DNA of 64,000 nucleotides, from assembly GCA_022711405.1 (NCBI GenBank), contig JAKLFC010000008.1:97658-161657 (forward strand), written 5' to 3'. Of the stretch, positions 30,728 to 42,428 are shown piece by piece. The position numbers and the translations under genes were made by a program. The DNA comes from Bacteroidota bacterium. GTDB lineage: Bacteria > Bacteroidota > Bacteroidia > Bacteroidales > JAGONC01. Within the stretch, counting starts at the first letter, position 1; each line of letters starts with the position of its first letter. The notes below the pieces were generated by a model. That model ran no database searches and was not told the origin of the DNA. It saw only the letters and a program-made list of their open reading frames with translations.

Positions 30728-32835
30728 AGCTGCAACAGCATTTTCCCTTTCTCTGTGATCTTCAGGTAAAATGACTGCTTTATGATGGATCCTTCCTGAA
30801 TAAATATTCCGATCAGCACCTGCACGATCCTTTTTGTACCATCGATCAGCAAACGGAATTCTTTTTCATTGATGCCGGCTTCCCTGTCCTTCAATTCAGC
30901 CAGTAACAGGTTGCGGCAATGGTCAACCACAGTGCGGTGAAGATAATCGTCGTCATGGAAATATAGTATTCCTTCTTTCGCAAGGTAAACCAGCATCATC
31001 AGCAGCTTCTGCTTGCCGATGCCCCTGGCCTGGGCTGCCGTAACCAGCTGTTCCATCTCCGTGGCCACTGATCTCTGAGCGCCATGCTGTTCAATGGTCT
31101 TATCAAGCCAGTCAAGGGATTCCTGCATTTTTTTATCTATCGTCACCTGAAATCCTTCCAGCAGCCATGCACTGCCGCTTTTCCGGATGCTCCCTTCTTT
31201 CTGCATGGCATCCAGCAGTGCATCCAGGTATTGTTTCTGCACCGTGGAATGAAAGCTCAGCTTGCCGGCCAAACCTTTGGCATCCAATCCGGATTCCAGC
31301 AATGGATTGGCTTCATGCCATTGTCGCAGTACTGACAGTACCTTCTGCCGGATGCTCTCGTCCAGAGAGTTCATGATCAAAATCGTATTTGATCCGGGAT
31401 TATACACGTGGACTTCAGAACTCAGTAACTCGTTTATATGGTTCAGAACATCATCGGGTGACAAATTAAGCCTGGCTGCAATCGTTTCCGGAAAAAACGG
31501 ACCCGCTTCCTTCCTCATTTCTATTTTTATCCATCCCAGCCCAGGCTGCCTCCTGCCTCCCACCTCCTGCAGCCTGTACCCCAATTCCTGCCCCTCCCCA
31601 TCTGGGGAGGGATTGGGGAGGGGCCAATAGCCTCCTGCCTTATTTCCCACCCCCTGCCCCTCCCCAGTTGGGGAGGAGTTGGGGAGGGGCCTCCCACCTC
31701 CCGCTTCCCTCAGATCCTTCAAATACTCCACCAATTTTACAGACCGCTTTTTATGATGCAGGGGAGTGATATCCATCACCATGCCCCCGCCGATGGTGGT
31801 ATCGTTGGAGGAATTCCGGATGACGTAATGATCTCCGTTCATAAGAAAAGCGGGTTTGTCAAGATGGATCTGTACCAGAGCCGATCCTCCGGGCATCAGC
31901 TGGTCTTTGTCCAGCAGGTGTATCCTTGCCTTGCATTTCAGGGTTCCGGTAAGAAAGATTACCTGGGACCATATGCTCAAATTCTCTGCCTCACTGAAAA
32001 GGATCAGCGAGGCATCGGTCATAAGGGTAGATGGCAGTCGCTGGCCGGAGAGTACTACTCCCCGTTCGAAGTCCTCGGCACTGATGCCCGACAGGTTCAG
32101 GGCAGCACGATCACCGGCGCAGACTGCGCTGACGGATTTGCCGTGCCGCTGTATTTGTCTAACCTTCAGTTCTTTATCTACGCCAGGTAAAAGATAGAGT
32201 TCGTCACCCGTTTTCACAGAACCATTCATCACTGTCCCTGTGACTACATATCCCTGTCCTTTCATGTGGAAGAGACGGTCGATGTACATCCGGAAAACAG
32301 CACCCGCAGGTTTATCCGGAATCCCCGGGATCAGGGCGTCGATCTCATTTACCAGTACATCCAGACCGGTTCCGGTGACGGCGGAGACGGGTACTATGGG
32401 AGCATGTTCAAAAGGAGTCCCCTCCAGGAATTCCATTACTTCCAATCGTGCCAGTTCCAGTGTTTCGTCGTCGGCCAGGTCGGCTTTGGTTAGCGCTACC
32501 AAACCCGTTTGGATACCCAATGACCGTATGATGTTGAGGTGCTCAACGGTCTGGGGCATGACCCCGCTGTCGGCCGCAATGACAAGCATCACCAGGTCGA
32601 TGCCGTAAGCACCGGCCACCATGGTCCTGATAAAGTCTCTGTGTCCGGGTACATCCACAATGCCGATGTTTTCTCCGGAGGGCAGGTCAAGGTGGGCGAA
32701 ACCGAGGTTGATGGTGATACCCCGCTCTTTTTCCTCTTTATGGGTATCGCAGTCGATACCGGTAAGCGCTTTGATGAGCGCAGTTTTACCATGGTCCACA
32801 TGGCCTGCGGTCCCCAGGATCAGGTGCCGGCTCAT
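30724..32835 (-). CDS. selB: Selenocysteine-specific elongation factor SelB with repeat-derived insert
   Basis: 703 residues. The GTPase domain starts at once: [14 protein letters not shown] (G1, residues 9-22), [14 protein letters not shown] (G2), DVPGHRDF (G3), TKADLAD (G4). Domains II and III run to about residue 375 ([26 protein letters not shown]). The C-terminal winged helices (about residues 450-703) bind the SECIS hairpin. Between them, residues about 383-434 are low-complexity ([24 protein letters not shown]) and come from two palindromic repeat copies; the frame is intact. It overlaps the selA stop by 4 bp (ATGA), so translation is coupled. Confidence 0.95.
31579..31689. repeat. Two copies of the GC-rich palindromic repeat inside selB
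   Basis: Copy A at 31579-31623 and copy B at 31649-31689 contain the palindromic core CCCCTCCCCA....GGGGAGG followed by GATTGGGGAGGGG-type sequence, like the intergenic copy at 26398. Read on the selB strand they encode [12 protein letters not shown] and [12 protein letters not shown] and keep the frame open. Confidence 0.88.
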
Positions 32836-34247
32836 GACGAGAAGGGATGGATTACCTGATGAATGATACGGGCAACAAGAGGTATCTCATGATCCGGAAT
32901 GGTCAGCACATCAAACAGAACTTGCCCTCTCCGCAGGATGCCCATCACAGGAGTGTCGTGAAGCAGGAGTTTGCGATACACTTGTTCAGCAAAGGCTGCC
33001 CTTTCCCGGCTGGTCTTGAAGAAGCCCCTGATCATTACGGCATAACTGGGTATTTCAGCTTCTGGAAGGGAGCCACCGCCAGTCTGGGCACCATTTGGAA
33101 CAACTTCGGAGTCGATGTGGAGAACCTTCAGCTCCTGATGAAGCATGTCGGCTTTCTGCCGGATCTCCTCCGGCGTCTTATGGAGCATGGCAAAAACCGG
33201 ATTTGTCTGCATCAGGTGTTCATCATCCAGATACGACAGGCAGGCTGCCTCGAGAAGGGCCAGGGTGGTCTTTCCCACGCGCAGGGCCCGGGTCAGCGGA
33301 TCCTTCTTCAACCGCGAAACGAACTCAGTTTTGCCGGCAATGATCCCTGCCTGCGGGCCACCCAGCAACTTATCGCCGCTGAAACTTACCAGGCCGACAC
33401 CCCTGCCCAGAGTCTGCCTTACATCAGGTTCATCCTTTAAAATCCCGATACCAGTTTTACGGATTAAGCCTGAACCCAAATCGTAGACCACCGGCAGAGA
33501 ATGCTTTTTTCCTAATTCAACAAGTTCCTCCAACGTGGGCTGGTGGGTGAATCCTTTGATTACATAATTCGATCGGTGCACTTTCATCAGAAGAGCTGTG
33601 CCAGGCGTGATGGCATTTTCATAATCCTCCAGCCGCGTCTTGTTGGTGGTTCCCACCTCGACCATCCGGCACCCGGAGGTTTTCATCACATCCGGCATGC
33701 GGAACGAACCGCCGATCTCGATCAGTTCACCCCGCGAGATGATCACTTCTTTCCGGCGCGCCAGGGTATGAAGGATCAGAAGGACCGCCGCAGCATTGTT
33801 ATTGACCACCAGAACATCCTCTGCACCGGTCAGGTACCTCAGCAGCCTTGTCAGATGCGAATAACGTGAGCCCCTTTTTGCATTTGCAAGGTCGAATTCC
33901 AGGTTGGAGTATCCTGTAAGCACTTCCCGTACATCGTCCAGGATCGCTTCACCCAGCGGCGATCTGCCAATGTTGGTATGGATGATCACCCCTGTGGCAT
34001 TGATAACCTTCCTCAGGCTGTGACGGGTCAGTTCAATGATTTTCGTGCTGATATCCCGGATGATGCAGGCCATGTCCGGTGCAGCCACCCCTTCTCTGAG
34101 AGTACTCCTGAAATCCTCCAGGGTTGATTGTATCGCAAACACTACCAGATCACGGGAGTGTGACTCAAGCAGGAGCTTTATTTCCTCTGTACCGAGTAAA
34201 GTGTCGACACCCGGGAGGTCTTTGAATGATCCGGTATTCCTGTCCAT
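32832..34247 (-). CDS. selA: L-seryl-tRNA(Sec) selenium transferase SelA
   Basis: 471-residue PLP enzyme that converts seryl-tRNA(Sec) to selenocysteinyl-tRNA(Sec) with selenophosphate. Motifs include the N-terminal [17 protein letters not shown] near residue 83, NNNAAAVLL, and the PLP-lysine K293 in [13 protein letters not shown]. Length is close to the family norm of about 460. It begins 31 bp downstream of tRNA-Sec and overlaps selB by 4 bp. The selenophosphate synthetase gene selD is not in the window. Confidence 0.97.
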
Positions 34248-34278: not shown

Positions 34279-34373
34279 TGGCAGAGAGGGCAGGGATCGA
34301 ACCTGCCACAGCCGGTTTTATCCGCCTGTCATTGGTTTTGAAGACCAACTGGAACACCAGTCCCGACCTCTCT
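34279..34373 (-). tRNA. selC: tRNA-Sec (anticodon UCA)
   Basis: 95 nt including a genomically encoded CCA. The anticodon stem TTGGT/ACCAA closes the loop CTTCAAA, with anticodon TCA at 34341-34339. The D arm GGGAC/GTTCC has a TGGT tetraloop, as in other selenocysteine tRNAs. A long variable arm (CAGGCGG against CCGGCTG, with one G-G mismatch) follows, and the T arm is GCAGG, TTCGATC, CCTGC. The discriminator is G. I count 7 acceptor pairs (AGAGAGG/CCTCTCT) rather than the usual 8. It lies between the selenoprotein gene and selA, probably in one transcript. Confidence 0.95.
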
Positions 34374-34433: not shown

Positions 34434-36236
34434 TTACCTTATAAGGATCATTTTACCGGTTTCGGAATGATTGTTCACAGTCAGGTTATAGAAGTAGAAT
34501 CCCTGTTCAACCGGTATGCCAGTATCATTCAAACCATCCCAGATGATGAAATGGGAACCGGCTGGTTGTTCTCCGGAAAGCAGGTGCTGGATCAACCTTC
34601 CGTTCAGGTCAAAGATATCGATCTGAATGTGGCTTTTTTGCCTGAGCTCGTAACTGATCTTGATCTGGTCAGAAAAAGGATTTGGAAAGGCAGCTGTAAA
34701 AAGTGAGGAAAGGTTTTCTCTAAGGGAAGTGATGGTTTGAATGTCAAGCAGATAATTAAGGTATTCGCTGATCAGGTAAGGTTTGATATTCAAGCTGTCG
34801 CTGTTCTTCATGGCACCGAAGACCAGGGTAGAGGAGATCGCCCTGTACACATCATTTTCGAACGAAAAGATCCTTCCTACCTGTTCCTCAGAATAAAAGA
34901 GCACTTCCGTGCCTGGCAGGGGCGCCATCCGGTCGATGCTGTAATGAGGATCAACTCCTCCTGCGTAGTCGAAATGGTTATCCTTCAGGAAATTCCCGTT
35001 TTCTCCGGAGATGCTGTCCACCTGATATTCTCCCCCGTCACCCGAGTACTGAAGTCCCAGTGCGCCGAGAAACTCCGTTCCCTGGTGGCTCAGTCCCAGA
35101 TCGACACTTTCAATGTATATACTTTTTCCGTTCTGGAGGAAATTGATCAGCCTGTCCTGGTCTGTTGCATCTACAAACCCGGGAGGAGTGAGGCTTCAGC
35201 TGTAACAGTAGCACCCCAGGGTGCTGATGACGGCATCGTAACTTAACAGGTCAGCAGGAAGCGAATGGGTGTAATCATACTGTATCCCTGCATAATTCAG
35301 TGCTTTGAGCAATCCCTCCTGGCTTTCTTCCAGGCTTCCTGACTCTGGATTTTCGACCGTTTCCAGCCCGTTGTCGTTATCCCAGAAAAGAATGCTGAAG
35401 TTCTCATCCGGCTCTATACGCAGAAAATGCGAGGGCGTGGAGTTATTGACAAGATAGTCGTCATTTTGTGTCACTACCACGCCATAAAGACATGTATTCT
35501 GGACTACGGTGGCGGTCCAGGGAATCTCATACAGTCCAGACTGGCCTGGATTGAGGGTAGTGTTCACATAAACCGATCCCAGCAGCTCGCCGGATCTATA
35601 GCTGAAGAGTCTTACATCGTATTCCGATTGCGGATTCAGACCGGTATTGGTCACCTTGATCTCCCATGTGGCTGTTTCGTTAACCTTTATGCGGGTTGGC
35701 CCGTAAACGGCAGAAGCAAGGAGATCATTGTCGTACAGCGCGGTGATCTCAACGTTGAATATGCTCCAGTCCCACCATGCATCTGTGGTGGGGCCCCATG
35801 ACCTGAACCTGATCTGGATGGTCTGACCGGCGTATTCATAAAGAGGCAGCCGAAGTTCCGAACCCTCTGGTGCACCCCAGCTGCCTTCCTTGTTTTCGTA
35901 AAGCCAGAGCACCGTTTCATCCTGACCGCTTATCACAGAGATCTGTGATTTCTCTGTGGTGACATTAGGCTCATACATGGAGAGGAACTGGCTGACGACC
36001 AGTTCCCCTGTATTGGATGGAAGAAGGATCTCAGGCGACAGCGCAGAGAAATCATAATTGGCGACCACAGGATAGTAGTACATGTAGAGCGAGCCCGGGA
36101 TAAAGGTCCAGTTTTCCTGGAGTGTCCAGCCCTCAGGAGTTTCCTCGAAACTCTCCTCCCAGCATACCATCTGGGAGAACAAGGGTATCTGGACGGCCAG
36201 CACTGTCGATACCAGGAAAAGAAGGTGTTTTATCAT
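34434..36236 (-). CDS. Predicted secreted selenoprotein with T9SS sorting domain, in-frame UGA as Sec347
   Basis: A 600-residue protein if TGA at 35198-35196 is read as selenocysteine. Signal peptide at residues 1-21 (LFLVSTVLAVQIPLFSQ). Residues 24-165: jelly-roll/adhesin-like domain (CWEESFEETPEGWTLQENW). Residues 170-280: CARDB-like Ig domain (TWEIKVTNTGLNPQSEYDV). Residues 285-500: Rossmann-like domain with YDAVISTLGCYCYS directly before Sec, giving C342-x-C344-x-x-U347. After Sec the frame stays open for 253 codons and keeps the fold (DRLINFLQNGKSIYIESVD), then a T9SS domain (FTAAFPNPFSDQIKISYEL). The downstream part has no ATG start of its own. A SECIS-like hairpin follows the TGA. It is 60 bp upstream of tRNA-Sec, then selA and selB. 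Alternative: a recent nonsense mutation. Confidence 0.8.
35159..35198 (-). promoter_or_regulatory. Candidate bacterial SECIS element with its UGA codon
   Basis: TGA occupies 35198-35196. After 16 nt comes arm GGTTTGT (35179-35173), loop AGATGCA (35172-35166), arm ACAGACC (35165-35159): seven pairs with one T-G wobble. A G-A mismatch and two more C-G pairs extend the base. The second loop base is G and the loop starts 24 nt after the TGA, both within the published bacterial SECIS pattern (G in the first two loop bases, about 16-37 nt spacing). SelB would bind it. Confidence 0.7.
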
Positions 36237-36312: not shown

Positions 36313-36777
36313 CTATCTTGGTTTGATCGTAATGTTCTTTACCTGGTCGGGCGTCACGGTTCCTCCGTTGTTTCCCCAGGCATTCAGCACATAATTGATC
36401 ACGGCGACAGCGTCCTCTTTAGTGTTGACCTGTGGTGGCATCGGTGTCGTGTAGGTGATCCCGTTCACTTTCATGGGTTCGTTGGAACCGTTGAGGACCT
36501 GGGCAACAGCCCTGACTTTGTCAGCCATCAGGTAATCCGAACCTTTCAGAGGCGGGAAGGCATTTGGTATCCCCAGCCCGGTGGCCTGGTGGCAGGGAGT
36601 GCATTTTTCCTTATAGATCTGGGCCCCTTTTGGATATTTCTGAGCAGCCGGATCGGCCTGCTGGGTCTGGAAGGAATCAGAAGCTGTACCGGCGGTGTAA
36701 CGAAAACCGTAACTGATCCATGCCAGCGAACTCACCACGAGTGTCGTGGCAAACAGTAAGATGATATTTCTCTTCAT
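36313..36777 (-). CDS. Secreted monohaem cytochrome c
   Basis: 154 residues. N-terminal hydrophobic segment at residues 5-25 (IILLFATTLVVSSLAWISYGF), a signal peptide or anchor. The haem site CTPCH is at about residues 59-63, followed by GIPNAFPPLKGSDYL and a distal methionine in MKVNGITYTTPMPPQ. This is the class I cytochrome c type found near Bacteroidetes oxidases and could deliver electrons to the cbb3 oxidase encoded just upstream. A -7 motif at 36811 suggests its own promoter. Confidence 0.88.
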   Translation of the reverse strand: MKRNIILLFATTLVVSSLAWISYGFRYTAGTASDSFQTQQADPAAQKYPKGAQIYKEKCTPCHQATGLGIPNAFPPLKGSDYLMADKVRAVAQVLNGSNEPMKVNGITYTTPMPPQVNTKEDAVAVINYVLNAWGNNGGTVTPDQVKNITIKPR

Positions 36778-36810
36778 TGTGACCGTAGATTTTGGATGAT
36801 TCTAAGGCTG

Positions 36811-36818
36811 CAAAATTA
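36811..36818 (-). promoter_or_regulatory. Candidate -7 element for the cytochrome c gene
   Basis: On the minus strand TAATTTTG followed by C matches TAnnTTTG, 33 bp before the start at 36777. If used, it could also drive the selenoprotein-selC-selA-selB genes, because no other promoter motif was found before 36236. Confidence 0.42.
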
Positions 36819-36852
36819 GTAAAAGTTTACCTGGGTGTGTACATGTTGATTA

Positions 36853-37557
36853 TTAATGATGCATCTGTTCCGTCCTGGGTTGCAGTTTGCTGTCCTTCGG
36901 GCTTATGTATTTGATACCCAGGTTCATCCCGCGCAGGATGAATAAAATCCCGATGAGAACGATCACCAAAGGGATGATCCTGCGGATGGCCGTTCGTAAT
37001 CGCGAGGATAACACATTTCCTGCAATGTTCAGTACAAAAAGCATTGGAATGGTCCCCACACCGAACCATACCATGAAAAGTGTCCCTCTGACGAGATCTC
37101 CAGTCGCCAGTGCACCTGCAATGGCAATGTACACAAGGCCACAGGGAAGAAATCCGTTGAGTATTCCTATAGCAAAAAGCGAAGTGTATGAACGGATCAT
37201 GAACAGGCGATGGAAGTGGTTGCTGAGGAATTGCGTAAATCTGGTGATGGTAATATGATAAAAATGAGACTTCCGAAAGAATGCAGGCAGCAGGACCGAG
37301 AGGACCATGATGATTCCCATAAGGATCGAGACCCATTGCTGTAATCCACTCATTTTTAGCCCCATGCCAATGATTCCGAAGATCATTCCCATAAATGCGT
37401 AGGTAAGGGTCCGTCCTGAATTGTACATAAGGCTTCCAAGGATTCTGGTAAGCCAGGTGTCGTTATTCAGCGGCAGGGCAATGGCGATCGGCCCGCACAT
37501 TCCCACACAGTGGAAACTGCCCATCAGACCCAGTATCAGCGCTTCCAATAATAGCAT
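36853..37557 (-). CDS. Sulfite exporter TauE/SafE family protein (oxidase-associated)
   Basis: 234 residues, six or seven membrane segments. The N-terminus LILGLMGSFHCVGMCGPIAIAL, with the conserved GMCGP, and FLPCGLVYIAIAGALATG are typical of the SafE-like/UreH-type proteins that close cbb3 oxidase operons in Bacteroidetes. Proposed roles are copper delivery or haem-protein assembly; not established. It starts just after ccoH with a 1-bp gap. Confidence 0.85.
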   Translation of the reverse strand: MLLLEALILGLMGSFHCVGMCGPIAIALPLNNDTWLTRILGSLMYNSGRTLTYAFMGMIFGIIGMGLKMSGLQQWVSILMGIIMVLSVLLPAFFRKSHFYHITITRFTQFLSNHFHRLFMIRSYTSLFAIGILNGFLPCGLVYIAIAGALATGDLVRGTLFMVWFGVGTIPMLFVLNIAGNVLSSRLRTAIRRIIPLVIVLIGILFILRGMNLGIKYISPKDSKLQPRTEQMHH

Positions 37558-37558
37558 T

Positions 37559-38008
37559 TCATTTTATGATTACAGTTTGTTCCTGATAATAGCTGAGGCT
37601 GTTCATTTCCCAATTCATCTTAAGGATGTATTTTCCGGGCTTAAAATTTTCCAGGTCAACCTGCTGCACTCCGGACGAATCCGGAAGTAATGGAATGAAT
37701 TCATCCAGACGGGCATCAGAAGGACGGTAGAAATGCAGGGTTCCTTTGACGGAATCCTGCAGAAAGGTGAGGGGTACGTTCACTGTCAGAAACCTGCCCT
37801 CCTGATCAATGATGATCCTTTCAGCCAGTAACCGTGTTCGGTTCATTTTATCGATCTGCTGCTGGAACCCGATCTCCTTTTCATAGTAATCCTCTTCCAC
37901 CAGGATGAACTCCTGGTAAGAGCTGAACACAAAAAATCCGATCACTGCTGTTATAAACAGGATGATGAAGATCAGAAGTCCTGTTCCCCATGAAAAATGT
38001 ATGTTCAT
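37559..38008 (-). CDS. ccoH: cbb3 oxidase assembly protein CcoH (FixH family)
   Basis: 149 residues with one N-terminal membrane helix (TGLLIFIILFITAVIGFFVF) and a periplasmic beta-rich domain (NVPLTFLQDSVKGTLHFYRP, PGKYILKMNWEMN) of the FixH type. FixH/CcoH assists assembly of the cbb3 complex. It sits between ccoG and the TauE/SafE-like gene. Confidence 0.88.
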   Translation of the reverse strand: MNIHFSWGTGLLIFIILFITAVIGFFVFSSYQEFILVEEDYYEKEIGFQQQIDKMNRTRLLAERIIIDQEGRFLTVNVPLTFLQDSVKGTLHFYRPSDARLDEFIPLLPDSSGVQQVDLENFKPGKYILKMNWEMNSLSYYQEQTVIIK

Positions 38009-38055
38009 GGCGAATGGCTTATGGGTCCGGTAAACACGGAATGGACCTTTCTGAT

Positions 38056-39429
38056 CTACTGATCACCGGAATAGATCCCGAGTTCGACGGGTGTTTTGTC
38101 GCCAGGAACCTGTGAGCGGTCAAGGTAAATAAAAAAGACGCCCTCGCTGACTGCCCTGGCTTTAGCCAGGAGTTTGTCGCCAATCACCTTGATTTCACCG
38201 CTGCCGGAAAGCAGTTGCAGCGTAACAGGCAGATCGGTGGACGTCTTATTGATCAGTTTAATATGATAAAGGTTGGATATACGGTTATCCGGTTGTTCCT
38301 GGTAGAGGGTTCCTGGCGCACGCAACACGGTCACCTCCACAGCTTTCCTGGCAACCATCGCATAGACGATGACGCCCAGCAGGACTGCCAGTACCGCCGA
38401 GTAAGCGATTGCCCGCATGTTGAACTTTACGCTGCTGCCTTCAGCAATGCTGCGTTCGGAGGCATACCGTATCAGCCCGGTGGGCTGGTTCACTGCTTTC
38501 ATCATGCTGTAGCAGGCGTCGATGCATGCGGTGCAATGGATGCATTCCAGCTGGGTGCCATTGCGGATGTCGATGCCGGTGGGGCATACCTGCACACATT
38601 GCGTGCAGTTGATGCAATCGCCTTTTTCTGCTGCTTTGCGGTTCTCTCCTTTAAAATAGGTGCCTTTAGGTTCTCCCCGTTTATGATCATAGGCCACCAC
38701 GATCGAGTTCCGGTCGAGCAAAACGCCCTGCAGCCTTCCGTAAGGACATACCATGGCACAGACCTGCTCCCTTAAAAATGCAAACACAAAATAAAAGACA
38801 CCCGAGAAAACGATCATTCCGGCAAGTCCGGCCAGGTGATCTCGCGGCGCATCGGTAACGATCTCTTTAAGTTGTTCTATGCCAATGATATAAGAAAGAA
38901 AGAAATTGCAGATCACAAACGCGATGAGGTAAAAGATGCCATGTTTGAGTATCTTCTTCATGATCCTGACCGCACTCCATGGCTGTTGACTGAGTTGTTT
39001 CTGTTGCCTTGGATTTCCCTCGATCAGCCATTCGATCCTTCGGTAGATCATTTCCATAAAAATGGTCTGTGGACATGCCCAGCCGCAGAAAACGCGGCCA
39101 TAGACCACGGTGAACAGAATAATGAACACCATCATGGAGATCATGGCAAGGAAGAAAAGATGGAAGTCCTGGGGCCAGAACTGGACGCCAAGCACTACGA
39201 ACTTCCTCTCCATGAAATTCAGCAGTAAGAGGGGTTCTCCGTTGATCTTAAGAAAAGGGCCGGTGAAAAAAAGCGCCAGCAAGAAAATGGCAACGAGGAT
39301 CCTGAATCGTGTCAGCCTTCCCCTGGGCTTCTTTGCATACACCCATACTCTTTTCCCTTTGTCATCGATCGTGGTCAGCTTATCGCGAAAGGAAGCTTCC
39401 TCCCTTGTTTCTTTCCTGTACTGCACCAT
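38056..39429 (-). CDS. ccoG: cbb3 oxidase accessory ferredoxin CcoG (RdxA/FixG)
   Basis: 457 residues. Four or five membrane helices, with a cysteine-proline motif in FCGWACPQTIF and an MVCPYGRLQG loop. A 2[4Fe-4S] ferredoxin section is at about residues 275-315 (CINCTQCVQVCP and CIHCTACIDAC). The C-terminus is an Ig-like domain, as usual in CcoG. It probably reduces Cu(II) for insertion into the oxidase. Confidence 0.95.
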   Translation of the reverse strand: MVQYRKETREEASFRDKLTTIDDKGKRVWVYAKKPRGRLTRFRILVAIFLLALFFTGPFLKINGEPLLLLNFMERKFVVLGVQFWPQDFHLFFLAMISMMVFIILFTVVYGRVFCGWACPQTIFMEMIYRRIEWLIEGNPRQQKQLSQQPWSAVRIMKKILKHGIFYLIAFVICNFFLSYIIGIEQLKEIVTDAPRDHLAGLAGMIVFSGVFYFVFAFLREQVCAMVCPYGRLQGVLLDRNSIVVAYDHKRGEPKGTYFKGENRKAAEKGDCINCTQCVQVCPTGIDIRNGTQLECIHCTACIDACYSMMKAVNQPTGLIRYASERSIAEGSSVKFNMRAIAYSAVLAVLLGVIVYAMVARKAVEVTVLRAPGTLYQEQPDNRISNLYHIKLINKTSTDLPVTLQLLSGSGEIKVIGDKLLAKARAVSEGVFFIYLDRSQVPGDKTPVELGIYSGDQ

Positions 39430-39456
39430 ATTTTGCTCCTGATTGGCGATAGTTGG

Positions 39457-40077
39457 TTAAGAACCCGGGTTGAAAAGTGTTCCCTCCTGTGCTTTTGGAT
39501 TGGGAGGATTCGTGCCCTGAAGGCTCATGATAAAACTTGCGACCTGTTGAATATCCGTAACCGATAGCATGTCTTTCCATGCGATCATCCCTTTTTCGAT
39601 CACACCCGTATTGATGACCTTCACGATGTCTTCGAAGCTGCCTCCATGGATCCAGTAGGCATCGGTCAGGTTGGGCCCTACAAGACCCTGTCCCTGTGCA
39701 AGATGGCAGACAGCGCAGTTTTTGTCGTACACGGTTTTACCACCCTCGAGGCTGGCAGCATCGGTGAGACGAGTGCCTGTTACCGTGGCTTCATCACCGG
39801 ATGAAGAGGAGGAGGGTGCAGGAGCTTCCTCGGATGGGGTTTGTTCAAAGGCAGCCATCTCGGTAAGATACTCCTCTTCCTGCAGGGGAGCAGTTTTTAG
39901 CACATGGAACCTGAGAATATAGATAACACCAATGATGATCGTTATGTAGAAAAGGCCCAGCCACCATCTCGGCAGCTTGTTGTTCAGCTCCTGTATGCCA
40001 TCATACTCATGTCCATGCATGATCTCATCACCGGTGAGCTGATCTCTTTCCTGGTTGTTTTCCGGGTCTGCTTTCAT
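39457..40077 (-). CDS. ccoP: cbb3 oxidase subunit III CcoP, monohaem form
   Basis: 206 residues. The N-terminal part HEYDGIQELNNKLPRWWLGLFY is the FixP_N signature, with one membrane helix (FYITIIIGVIYILRF). After a Ser/Glu/Pro-rich linker (residues about 80-105) there is a single cytochrome c domain with CAVCH near residue 125 and KGMIAWKDML as axial-methionine region. Proteobacterial CcoP has two haem sites; here only one is seen. It lies between ccoQ and ccoG. Confidence 0.93.
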   Translation of the reverse strand: MKADPENNQERDQLTGDEIMHGHEYDGIQELNNKLPRWWLGLFYITIIIGVIYILRFHVLKTAPLQEEEYLTEMAAFEQTPSEEAPAPSSSSSGDEATVTGTRLTDAASLEGGKTVYDKNCAVCHLAQGQGLVGPNLTDAYWIHGGSFEDIVKVINTGVIEKGMIAWKDMLSVTDIQQVASFIMSLQGTNPPNPKAQEGTLFNPGS

Positions 40078-40113
40078 AAAAGTCTATTTTACAAATGATC
40101 TGAATTAGGCATT

Positions 40114-40296
40114 TTACTGATTGTTTTCTTCCATCTCTTCCAGCGGAATGTTTTTCATCTCGTGGATGGTCTTTTTATCTATAGAGAACGTGTGAATGAT
40201 CATCACGACGAATACGATAAAAAACAGCACAAAGGAGATGACCGGGTAAATGCTGATCCCCGGTATGGTTTCGAGATGATGCTGAATGATATCCAT
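40114..40296 (-). CDS. ccoQ: CcoQ-like small oxidase subunit
   Basis: 60 residues with one membrane helix (YPVISFVLFFIVFVVMIIHTF) followed by a charged tail. Size, position between ccoNO and ccoP, and single-helix build fit CcoQ/FixQ, which stabilises the oxidase. It overlaps the ccoNO stop by 1 bp. Sequence identity in this family is too low for a firm call. Confidence 0.75.
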   Translation of the reverse strand: MDIIQHHLETIPGISIYPVISFVLFFIVFVVMIIHTFSIDKKTIHEMKNIPLEEMEENNQ

Positions 40297-42428
40297 TACC
40301 TGCCCTCCATGATGTCGGTCCCCAGCCGTTGCAGGTAGGCGATCAGAGCAATGATCTCCTTATCTGACCGGACTTCTATTCCGGCTGACTTCAATCCGTC
40401 GGCTATCTGCTGTGCCTGTATGGAAAGGTCGTCGTTTGCCTGCTCTGCATAGCCTTCGGGGTAAGGCACTCCCAGCTTTTGCATGACCGAGATCTTTCTT
40501 GCCGTGGTGCAGGAGTTCAGCCTGTTTCGCAGCAACCATGAATATCTGGGCATGATGGATTGCTCATTCAGTTTACGGGGGTCATCCATATGGTTGTAAT
40601 GCCAGGAATCTGGTTTATACAGTCTTCCCGATTTAACGCCTTCGCGTGCCAGGTCGGGTCCTGTGCGTTTGGAGCCCCATTGGAAGGGATGATCATATAC
40701 AAATTCCCCGGCTTTGGAATATTCACCGTACCGTTCGGTTTCTGAGCGGAAAGGTCTGATCATCTGCGAATGGCACGTATAGCATCCTTCGCGGATGTAG
40801 ATGTCCCTGCCCTCCAGTTCAAGGGGCGTGTATGGTTTGACGCTGGCGATGGTGGGAACGTTGGATTTGATCAGCCAGGTGGGAATGATCTCTACGAGGC
40901 CTCCGATGAGGATCACCACCAGGGAGACGATCATGAACTGAACCGGCTTACGTTCGAGCCAGCGGTGCCTGGATTCACCCTGAATCCGGCGTCCGGATAT
41001 AGTGTCCAGCGGAGCAGCACTGGCCGCCTCATCCCGGATGAACTTGCCGTGTGTGACCGTTTTCACCAGGTTATACACCCCGATGATGACCCCGGTGATA
41101 TAGAGTAATCCTCCGAAAGCCCGGGCCGCGTACATGGGTATTAGCTGCGTAACGGTCTCAAGGAAATTAGGATATTTCAGGAAACCGTCGGGAGTGAATT
41201 CCTTCCACATGAGGGTCTGTGTAATGGCCGCCCAGTACAGCGGGATGGCATAGAAAAGAATACCGAGGGTTCCGATCCAGAAATGCGTGTTGGCCAGCTT
41301 CCTGGAGAACAGCTGGGTGCCGAATAAACGGGGTACCATCCAGTACAGCATCCCGAACGTAAGGAATCCATTCCAGCCAAGAGCACCAATGTGAACATGA
41401 GCGATGGTCCAGTCCGTAAAATGTGTGAAGGCATTTACGGTTTTTGTCGACATCAGCGGACCTTCGAGCGTCGACATGCCGTAGGCCGTCACGGCTACCA
41501 CAAAGAATTTCAGGACCGGATCCTCCCTCACTTTGTCCCACGCTCCGCGAAGCGTCAGCAGCCCGTTGAGCATTCCTCCCCATGAAGGGGCGATAAGGAT
41601 GATGGAGAAGACGGTTCCCAGTGTCTGTGCCCAGTCAGGCAGCGATGAATAGAGCAGGTGGTGAGGCCCTGCCCAGATATAAATAAAGATCAGCGCCCAG
41701 AAATGAATGATCGACAACCGGTAGGAATACACCGGACGGTTCGCTGCCTTGGGGAGGTAATAGTACATCAGCCCGAGGAAAGGTGTGGTAAGGAAGAAGG
41801 CTACGGCGTTGTGGCCATACCACCACTGCACCAGCGCATCCTGGACGCCGGCGAAGACTGGATAGCTTTTCAGAAAATTGACCGGTATTTCGATGGAGTT
41901 GACAATATGCAGCACGGCTACTGTAACAAAAGTGGCAATGTAAAACCAGACAGCGACATAGATGTGGCGGGTTCTCCGCTTCAGCAGGGTACCGAACATG
42001 TTCCATCCAAAGATAACCCAGATGATGGTGATGGCCAGGTCGATAGGCCACTCCAGCTCTGCATATTCCTTACTGAGCGTATATCCTGCCAGAAAGGTCA
42101 GCGCAGCCGAAACAATGATCAGCTGCCAGCCCCAGAAATGGATATAGCTCAGGGTGTCGCTGAACATCCGGGCTTTGCACAACCGTTGCAGAGAATAGTA
42201 AGTGCCTGCAAAAATAGCATTGCCCACAAAGGCAAAGATCACAGCATTGGTGTGCAGGGGCCGGATCCGGCTGAATGTGGTCATCGCCGTATTAAAGGAT
42301 AACTCGGGCCAGACCAGCTGCAGGGCTGCCAGGATACCTACAAGCATTCCGATCACTCCCCAGAACAGGGTAGCGTAAAGGAAGTACTTGACAATTCTGT
42401 TATCGTAGTAGAATTTCTCCTGATCCAT
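40296..42428 (-). CDS. ccoNO: Fused cbb3 cytochrome c oxidase subunits I and II (CcoN-CcoO)
   Basis: 710 residues. The first about 480 residues are CcoN: twelve membrane helices, with haem-copper histidines in PLHTNAVIFAF, WWYGHNAVAFFLT, GPHHLLYSSLPDW and TIAHVHIGALGWNGF. After a linker the CcoO part has one helix (FMIVSLVVILIGGLVEIIPTW) and a haem site CYTCH near residue 560, with MIRPFRSETERYGEYSKAGE. The fusion is normal for Bacteroidetes. It reduces oxygen at high affinity. Confidence 0.96.
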   Translation of the reverse strand: MDQEKFYYDNRIVKYFLYATLFWGVIGMLVGILAALQLVWPELSFNTAMTTFSRIRPLHTNAVIFAFVGNAIFAGTYYSLQRLCKARMFSDTLSYIHFWGWQLIIVSAALTFLAGYTLSKEYAELEWPIDLAITIIWVIFGWNMFGTLLKRRTRHIYVAVWFYIATFVTVAVLHIVNSIEIPVNFLKSYPVFAGVQDALVQWWYGHNAVAFFLTTPFLGLMYYYLPKAANRPVYSYRLSIIHFWALIFIYIWAGPHHLLYSSLPDWAQTLGTVFSIILIAPSWGGMLNGLLTLRGAWDKVREDPVLKFFVVAVTAYGMSTLEGPLMSTKTVNAFTHFTDWTIAHVHIGALGWNGFLTFGMLYWMVPRLFGTQLFSRKLANTHFWIGTLGILFYAIPLYWAAITQTLMWKEFTPDGFLKYPNFLETVTQLIPMYAARAFGGLLYITGVIIGVYNLVKTVTHGKFIRDEAASAAPLDTISGRRIQGESRHRWLERKPVQFMIVSLVVILIGGLVEIIPTWLIKSNVPTIASVKPYTPLELEGRDIYIREGCYTCHSQMIRPFRSETERYGEYSKAGEFVYDHPFQWGSKRTGPDLAREGVKSGRLYKPDSWHYNHMDDPRKLNEQSIMPRYSWLLRNRLNSCTTARKISVMQKLGVPYPEGYAEQANDDLSIQAQQIADGLKSAGIEVRSDKEIIALIAYLQRLGTDIMEGR

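What the first reader, a model, noticed from the sequence alone, without database searches (positions are those of the whole stretch)
34434..36236. Undescribed exported selenoprotein next to its own selenocysteine machinery
One minus-strand frame of 601 codons is interrupted by a single TGA at 35198-35196. On both sides the sequence is protein-like: the domain before it ends in YDAVISTLGCYCYS and the part after it continues the same Rossmann-like fold (DRLINFLQNGKSIYIESVD) for 253 codons to a T9SS sorting domain. Between the TGA and the next possible start (a GTG at 35021) there are 58 sense codons with no stop. The gene is followed directly by tRNA-Sec, selA and selB. The product would be a signal-peptide-bearing, T9SS-sorted selenoprotein with a C-x-C-x-x-Sec motif. 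I know of no described selenoprotein family with this build, though this is from memory.
Basis: partly seen in the sequence, partly recalled or inferred. Interest (0 to 1): 0.97.

Follow-up and report, generated by a model that had tools for sequence, protein, structure and literature searches.

The report
New family of likely surface selenoproteins
A gene that sits beside the bacterium's own selenocysteine-making genes carries an internal TGA codon that relatives in other genomes keep at the same place or replace by cysteine; it is predicted to be read as selenocysteine and would give an undescribed, likely cell-surface selenium enzyme.

Summary
The 600-codon frame with one TGA (35198-35196) is real and is followed by tRNA-Sec, selA and selB; selD is elsewhere in the genome. 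All 20 database homologues found end at the residue before that TGA. In DNA, 38 of 40 related loci (40 of 42 gene copies; Bacteroidota, Cloacimonadota, Zixiibacteriota) have TGA at that codon and two have TGC (Cys); none has TAA or TAG. Relatives show purifying selection on both sides of the TGA. Excess RNA structure and strong synonymous-codon constraint peak directly behind it (a SECIS-like hairpin). Eighteen of 40 loci have tRNA-Sec beside the gene. TGA is an ordinary stop elsewhere in the window. The sorting tail lies behind the TGA, so export would need Sec decoding. I found the family neither in the 119-family 2026 catalogue nor in NCBIfam. Against: close relatives have lost the gene or keep remnants, 28 of 30 Bacteroidota hairpins (not the window's own) break the usual loop-G rule, and the catalysed reaction is inferred only.

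The parts
34434..36236 (-). selenoprotein gene, 600 codons plus TAA stop, one in-frame TGA
36171..36236 (-). N-terminal hydrophobic stretch, likely signal peptide (residues 1-22)
   Evidence: sequence read by eye; no signal-peptide program available
35733..36170 (-). MAM-like beta domain (residues 23-168)
35406..35744 (-). CARDB-like domain (residues about 165-277)
34734..35402 (-). Sec domain, GATase1/ThuA-like fold (residues 279-501)
35196..35198 (-). TGA codon predicted to be read as selenocysteine (residue 347); motif C344-x-x-U347
   Evidence: TGA in 38 of 40 related loci, TGC in 2 of 40
35156..35183 (-). SECIS-like hairpin directly behind the TGA (loop 23 nt after the codon)
34446..34688 (-). 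type A T9SS sorting domain (residues 517-597)
   Evidence: PF18962 and TIGR04183 above cut-off
34279..34373 (-). tRNA-Sec (anticodon TCA)
32832..34247 (-). selA, L-seryl-tRNA(Sec) selenium transferase
   Evidence: PF03841 452 bits
30724..32835 (-). selB, Sec-specific elongation factor
   Evidence: PF00009 and PF25461

Best explanation
The gene carries one in-frame TGA, conserved as TGA or Cys across three phyla and predicted to be read as selenocysteine with the help of a likely SECIS hairpin just behind it, which would give a likely T9SS-exported surface protein whose CxxU motif is predicted to act as a selenol-thiol redox centre. How it would work: the ribosome meets the UGA, SelB brings Sec-tRNA-Sec (made by the neighbouring selA and tRNA-Sec genes and by selD elsewhere) to the hairpin about 13-40 nt after the codon, and translation goes on for 253 codons. 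Only the full-length chain carries the T9SS signal, so without selenium the product would be a 346-residue fragment without that signal; selenium supply would thus gate surface display. Outside the cell, Cys344 and Sec347 would sit in the loop after a central strand of a GATase1/ThuA-like domain, next to MAM-like and CARDB-like beta domains. This pair likely cycles between selenol/thiol and selenylsulfide to reduce or oxidise an extracellular substrate. Shown by sequence: conserved TGA and Cys exchange, selection on both sides in relatives, RNA-level constraint, Sec machinery, sorting signal. Predicted: fold. Inferred: Sec insertion in vivo, export, redox chemistry, selenium gating. Unknown: substrate.
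For: (1) 20 of 20 homologues found, with 40-79% identity, end exactly before the TGA (their DNA was not fetched by that search). (2) In DNA, 38 of 40 loci and 40 of 42 gene copies have TGA and 2 have TGC; no copy has TAA or TAG. (3) A second protein search gave 8 proteins that cover the column, and 8 of 8 have Cys there (P0030 is the L052 gene and P0035 matches L050, so 6 are new); Cys copies fall in two clades beside Sec copies, mostly of Cloacimonadota. (4) dN is below dS before and after the TGA in every comparison with finite, non-zero dS: 9 of 13 pairs on both sides, a tenth before the TGA only. (5) Folding z: -1.52 and -1.73 in the windows at 0 and +15 nt, against -0.63 to +0.53 in the other 41 windows; synonymous resampling mean z -1.59, 15 of 41 genes at 0.05 or below. 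(6) Codon choice behind the TGA in 29 Bacteroidota copies: Val+8 GTA 26 of 28 Val (background 26%), Asp+12 GAC 22 of 23 (26%), Gln+13 CAG 29 of 29 (50%), Ala+10 GCA 20 of 20 (36%). (7) tRNA-Sec beside the gene in 18 of 40 loci; selA in 19 of 41 neighbourhoods including the window; L024 runs gene, tRNA-Sec, selA, selB, TusA-like, selD-like. (8) selD in the window's genome. (9) TGA is the stop of 11 of 25 other ORFs of at least 300 codons in the window, so the code is not reassigned. (10) CxxU: Cys at -3 in 44 of 44 rows; CxxC in 7 of the 8 Cys proteins. (11) T9SS tail in 28 of 30 members.
Against: No selenium incorporation, protein or transcript was measured. The gene is dispensable: same-genus G001 has selA and tRNA-Sec but only tail-type matches, G002 keeps only a remnant beside its tRNA-Sec with the Sec domain deleted, and same-family G004 has a fragment with a TAG and no selA or tRNA-Sec above cut-off. 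Of the 60 genomes of that search, the window's own included, only the window's genome and G003 hold a near-full match. Selection on the window's own copy could not be measured: its nearest DNA relatives are saturated at synonymous sites. The Bacteroidota hairpin meets the published rule of a G in the first two loop positions in only 2 of 30 rows, the window among them (rule read in PMC13188914). RNAalifold over all 39 distinct sequences found almost no common structure and no better than column-shuffled controls (-0.31); for Bacteroidota alone it found a weak one (-2.7). Direct covariation is modest: 3 of 10 pairs with changes on both sides, though the covariation score was reached by 0 of 500 shuffles. 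The two Cys genes also fold in this region, so hairpin energy alone is not specific to Sec copies. One of two search patterns behind the 40 loci held part of the motif GCYC, so motif counts are partly selected; the TGA itself was not in the pattern. P0036 has Arg in place of the first Cys of CxxC, so a CxxC pair is not obligatory.
Confidence: 0.85

Rival explanations
1. Sec is inserted, but Sec347 is a metal ligand or a nucleophile rather than half of a CxxU redox pair. The invariant WDNDN, Glu376 and Asp435 would form a metal or substrate site next to the selenium.
For: Of 39 domain rows, the invariant columns include W-D-N-D-N, one Glu and one further Asp besides Cys and Sec/Cys. P0036 keeps Cys at the Sec column although the partner Cys is Arg.
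Against: The Cys at -3 is invariant in 44 of 44 rows, and 7 of 8 Cys proteins keep CxxC, as expected of a redox pair.
Confidence: 0.25
2. The TGA is a true stop. The 346-residue product is the protein, and the second half is a decaying or separate gene.
For: All 20 database homologues found end there. Remnants exist in G002 and G004.
Against: dN/dS is below 1 behind the TGA in relatives, 38 of 40 loci keep TGA and 2 have Cys with the frame open, and 58 sense codons precede the next start. The Cys homologues are continuous proteins. The T9SS tail lies behind the TGA.
Confidence: 0.02
3. TGA is reassigned to an ordinary amino acid in this genome, or is read through by a near-cognate tRNA without selenium.
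For: The frame is open after the TGA.
Against: TGA ends 11 of 25 other large ORFs of the window, selA among them, and 5 of the 42 homologous genes themselves (L021, L022, L024, L028, L038). Sec machinery is adjacent. The exchange residue is Cys, and there is RNA-level constraint behind the codon.
Confidence: 0.02

Closest known systems
Prokaryotic selenoproteins with CxxU motifs (GrdA, SelW-like, AhpD-like; Table 1 of PMC13188914)
   Same: In-frame UGA, CxxU motif, Sec machinery in the genome.
   Different: Different predicted domain make-up; carries a T9SS signal; in no row of the 119-family table. In NCBIfam the only hit above its cut-off is the T9SS tail; the weaker hits fall on the tail too.
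Glutamine amidotransferase selenoprotein (PyrG/CTP-synthase-like, NF004836, GxUxG; deep-Sep, PMC12013277)
   Same: Also a predicted Sec protein on a GATase1-type domain.
   Different: Motif GxUxG, not CxxU; no NF004836 hit was reported for P0001; this domain has no conserved His and no invariant Cys outside the CxxU pair.
ThuA-like / GATase1-like proteins (PDB 4pxy, 3rht, 3soz, 2gk3)
   Different: Sequence identity 11-15%; the Sec-bearing loop and the WDNDN motif are features of this family in the alignment.
C-terminal domain of T9SS peptidase-like proteins in Bacteroidota (own-genome L006; L059, L060)
   Same: Same domain order (this domain, then T9SS tail), 25-28% identity over residues about 305-600; naming as S8/C25-type peptidases is by eye.
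   Different: The loop is missing: the alignments have a gap where CxxU and TPPG stand, with no Cys or Sec.
TonB-dependent receptor, FCYXU motif-type (NF049945)
   Same: A predicted outer-envelope selenoprotein with a C-Y-x-U motif (table row; passages of PMC12013277).
   Different: A different protein; no NF049945 hit was reported for P0001.

Membership tests
Selenoprotein | In-frame UGA conserved as UGA or Cys in homologues | tested here: met
   38 of 40 loci TGA, 2 of 40 TGC; 8 of 8 proteins that cover the column have Cys
Selenoprotein | Coding selection continues behind the UGA | tested here: met
   dN below dS on both sides in all pairs with finite, non-zero dS; not measurable for the window's own copy
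Selenoprotein | SECIS element behind the UGA | tested here: met
   structure peak and codon constraint; hairpin at or below -7.5 kcal/mol in 19 of 30 Bacteroidota and 6 of 12 other rows, control 27 of 252; function not tested
[quoted passage not shown]
   12 of 12 non-Bacteroidota rows have such a hairpin (6 at or below -7.5), only 2 of 30 Bacteroidota rows do, one of them the window (loop AGAUGCA)
Selenoprotein | Sec machinery in the genome | tested here: met
   tRNA-Sec, selA, selB, selD
Selenoprotein | Selenium in the protein | not testable with these tools
   needs 75Se labelling or mass spectrometry
T9SS cargo (type A) | C-terminal sorting domain | tested here: met
   PF18962 and TIGR04183 above cut-off; 28 of 30 members at E 1e-3
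T9SS cargo (type A) | N-terminal signal peptide | not tested
   hydrophobic N-terminus read by eye only
Class I glutamine amidotransferase | GATase1 fold | tested here: met
Class I glutamine amidotransferase | Cys-His-Glu catalytic triad (recalled) | tested here: not met
   no invariant or nearly invariant His among 39 rows; the only invariant Cys columns are the CxxU pair
Thioredoxin-fold selenoproteins | Thioredoxin fold | tested here: inconclusive
   not among the 50 fold matches listed in each search; a family that is not listed is not excluded

The most novel reading that the evidence does not exclude
A selenium-gated surface enzyme. The T9SS address lies behind the UGA, so only a selenium-replete cell can display the protein, and the selenocysteine has made a new redox active site in a loop of a GATase1-like fold that normally does other chemistry. 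In Bacteroidota the recoding hairpin has its own loop type (AAAUGCA), which would mean that their SelB reads a second class of bacterial SECIS. The gene travels with tRNA-Sec, selA and selB and may be a main reason why these lineages keep selenocysteine.
Probability: 0.45. Interest if true: 0.88.

Novelty: new variant of a known kind. Interest (0 to 1): 0.82.

Why it matters
It would add a selenoprotein family that gene callers cut at the TGA in all 20 database homologues found, and it would place selenium chemistry on the outer surface of Bacteroidota and Cloacimonadota by way of T9SS, for which my paper searches listed no precedent. It offers a testable link between selenium supply and surface display, a redox site in an unexpected fold, and a possible second SECIS loop type.

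Tried and rejected
Code reassignment of TGA: rejected (five homologous genes themselves end in TGA). Young pseudogene or sequencing error: rejected. Own-genome paralogues as Cys forms: 40 other matches in the own genome, most on the sorting tail; of the two reported to span the Sec column, L006 has a gap in the loop, and in L008 my own alignment reached the tail only, so L008 was not judged. GATase or ThuA catalysis: fold shared, triad not conserved. Sequence-profile search of the PDB with the domain: nothing (best E 0.079), so the fold rests on structure prediction. RNAalifold on the mixed set: nothing (-0.31); Bacteroidota alone weak (-2.7). Conserved neighbours within 7 kb: besides selA (19 of 41), selB (cluster of 19 of which the L049 row is an IF-2 by eye, so at most 18), a selD-like gene (9) and a TusA-like gene (8; names from L024, and by eye), none in more than 6 of 41 neighbourhoods (many contigs are short). 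Prx-like (PF00578) and molybdopterin oxidoreductase (PF04879) searches in G000-G003 showed no further in-frame TGA; an FDH-like frame in G003 has Cys at the usual Sec place (judged by eye). I did not establish whether the window's genome has other selenoproteins. Thioredoxin fold: not listed among fold matches, not excluded.

Literature (library): searches (search listings) showed no paper that describes this family. PMC13188914: abstract, passages, sections 5 and 9, and parts 1-2 of 3 of section 7 read. PMC12013277: passages only. Subscription papers and preprints are not covered.

Full report
The observation. The minus-strand frame 36236-34434 reads 600 residues with one TGA at residue 347. 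It starts with a hydrophobic stretch and ends in a T9SS type A sorting domain above the Pfam and NCBIfam cut-offs. tRNA-Sec lies 60 nt downstream, followed by selA and selB; selD lies elsewhere in the same genome. TGA is used as the stop of 11 of 25 other ORFs of at least 300 codons in the window.

The TGA is conserved. A protein search found 28 hits: the query's own first half, 20 homologues of 338-356 residues with 40-79% identity, and 7 that share only the tail (only the 7993 candidates sharing most words were scored). All 20 homologues end at the residue before the TGA column. A scan of a collection with one genome for each of 84,980 species gave 40 loci. The codon at the column is TGA in 38 of 40 loci and TGC in 2 of 40, or 40 and 2 of 42 gene copies, since L018 and L019 carry two copies each. 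In L040 a second, 26% identical paralogue beside the Sec copy has Arg aligned there and lacks the loop. The scan used two peptide patterns, one of which held part of the Cys motif, so motif counts are partly selected; the TGA was not part of either pattern. L056 is the same contig as L016 and is a duplicate row.

Cys forms. A search from the L052 protein gave 72 hits; 8 of them cover the column and all 8 have Cys there, 7 as CxxC and one (P0036) with Arg as first residue. P0030 is the L052 gene and P0035 cannot be told from L050 in the tree, so 6 are new. On a tree of 46 domains the 9 Cys rows fall in two clades beside Sec rows, mostly of Cloacimonadota (unrooted, one or two changes). The genomes of both Cys loci also hold tRNA-Sec and selA.

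Selection. In 13 gene pairs compared on both sides of the TGA, dN was below dS in every comparison with finite, non-zero dS (9 pairs on both sides, one more before the TGA only). The remaining three pairs were saturated or identical, both window pairs among them, so selection on the window's own copy was not measured. For example L023/L026 has dN 0.012 and dS 0.135 behind the TGA.

RNA signal. In 45-nt windows from -240 to +390, mean folding z over 42 TGA rows was -1.52 at 0 and -1.73 at +15; the other 41 windows lay between -0.63 and +0.53. Resampling synonymous codons from the same genes gave mean z -1.59, with 15 of 41 genes at 0.05 or below. In 29 Bacteroidota copies the codons behind the TGA are nearly fixed while their use elsewhere in the genes is not: Val+8 GTA 26 of 28 (background 26%), Asp+12 GAC 22 of 23 (26%), Gln+13 CAG 29 of 29 (50%), Ala+10 GCA 20 of 20 (36%). 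A ten-pair helix forms in 86.4% of cells against 17-46% when slid, with 3 of 10 pairs changed on both sides. A test against the published bacterial SECIS model (text of PMC13188914) gave an energy of -7.5 or lower in 19 of 30 Bacteroidota and 6 of 12 other rows, against 27 of 252 control positions. With the loop-G rule the numbers are 2 of 30 (the window and L034), 6 of 12 and 14 of 252. So the other phyla fit the model's loop rule, and most Bacteroidota rows have a related hairpin with a 7-nt loop of type AAAUGCA. Results against: RNAalifold on all 39 distinct sequences gave -0.31, no better than column shuffles, and -2.7 on Bacteroidota alone. The Cys genes at L050 and L052 fold in this region too.

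Linkage. tRNA-Sec is next to the gene in 18 of 40 loci: 17 downstream on the same strand, from a 2-nt overlap to 206 nt, and L040 on the opposite strand at 43 nt. selA is a neighbour in 19 of 41 neighbourhoods including the window, a selD-like gene in 9 and a TusA-like gene in 8 (many contigs are short). In L024 the order is gene, tRNA-Sec, selA, selB, TusA-like, selD-like.

Loss. Of the 60 genomes, the window's own included, only the window's genome and G003 have a near-full match. Same-genus G002 has a remnant directly before its tRNA-Sec and selA with the Sec domain deleted; G001 has selA and tRNA-Sec but only tail-type matches; same-family G004 has a fragment with a TAG and neither tRNA-Sec above cut-off nor selA. 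The gene is therefore dispensable and prone to loss.

Mechanism. I commit to a T9SS-exported selenol-thiol redox protein. Sequence evidence for Sec decoding is strong; Sec insertion itself, export, redox chemistry and selenium-gated display are inferred, and the substrate is unknown.

Novelty. The 2026 catalogue of 119 families/subfamilies lists no such family, NCBIfam release 20.0 gave no hit above a cut-off except the T9SS tail, and the paper searches named under Tried and rejected listed none.

Noticed in passing
L018:8072-11803 and L019:354-4086: Two tandem copies of the selenoprotein gene, both with TGA, with tRNA-Sec behind the second copy.
   Followed up: partly
L057 (G002:C6) and L058 (G004:C33): Remnants of the gene in a same-genus and a same-family genome; in G002 the remnant still sits before tRNA-Sec and selA.
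   Followed up: partly
A4 (29 Bacteroidota copies), loop AAAUGCA; window 35166-35172: Bacteroidota SECIS-like hairpins share a 7-nt loop type that breaks the usual loop-G rule in 28 of 30 rows (the window's own loop AGAUGCA keeps it); possibly a second SECIS class.
   Followed up: partly
P0036 (database protein): Cys homologue with WRTGC: the Sec-column Cys is kept while the partner Cys is replaced by Arg.
   Followed up: no
L023, L030: Records titled Chlorobiota; L023 and L029 (92-94% identical to L030) place inside the Bacteroidota part of the tree, so the titles are probably wrong.
   Followed up: partly
window 36313-42428 (-): Upstream neighbours: cytochrome c and a DsbD_2-type membrane protein by Pfam, then by eye a cbb3-oxidase-like set; none of them is in a neighbour cluster of three or more loci.
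   Followed up: partly
L115 (G003:C320:3000-4864): FDH-like frame of a relative carries Cys, judged by eye, at the place where Sec is usual.
   Followed up: no
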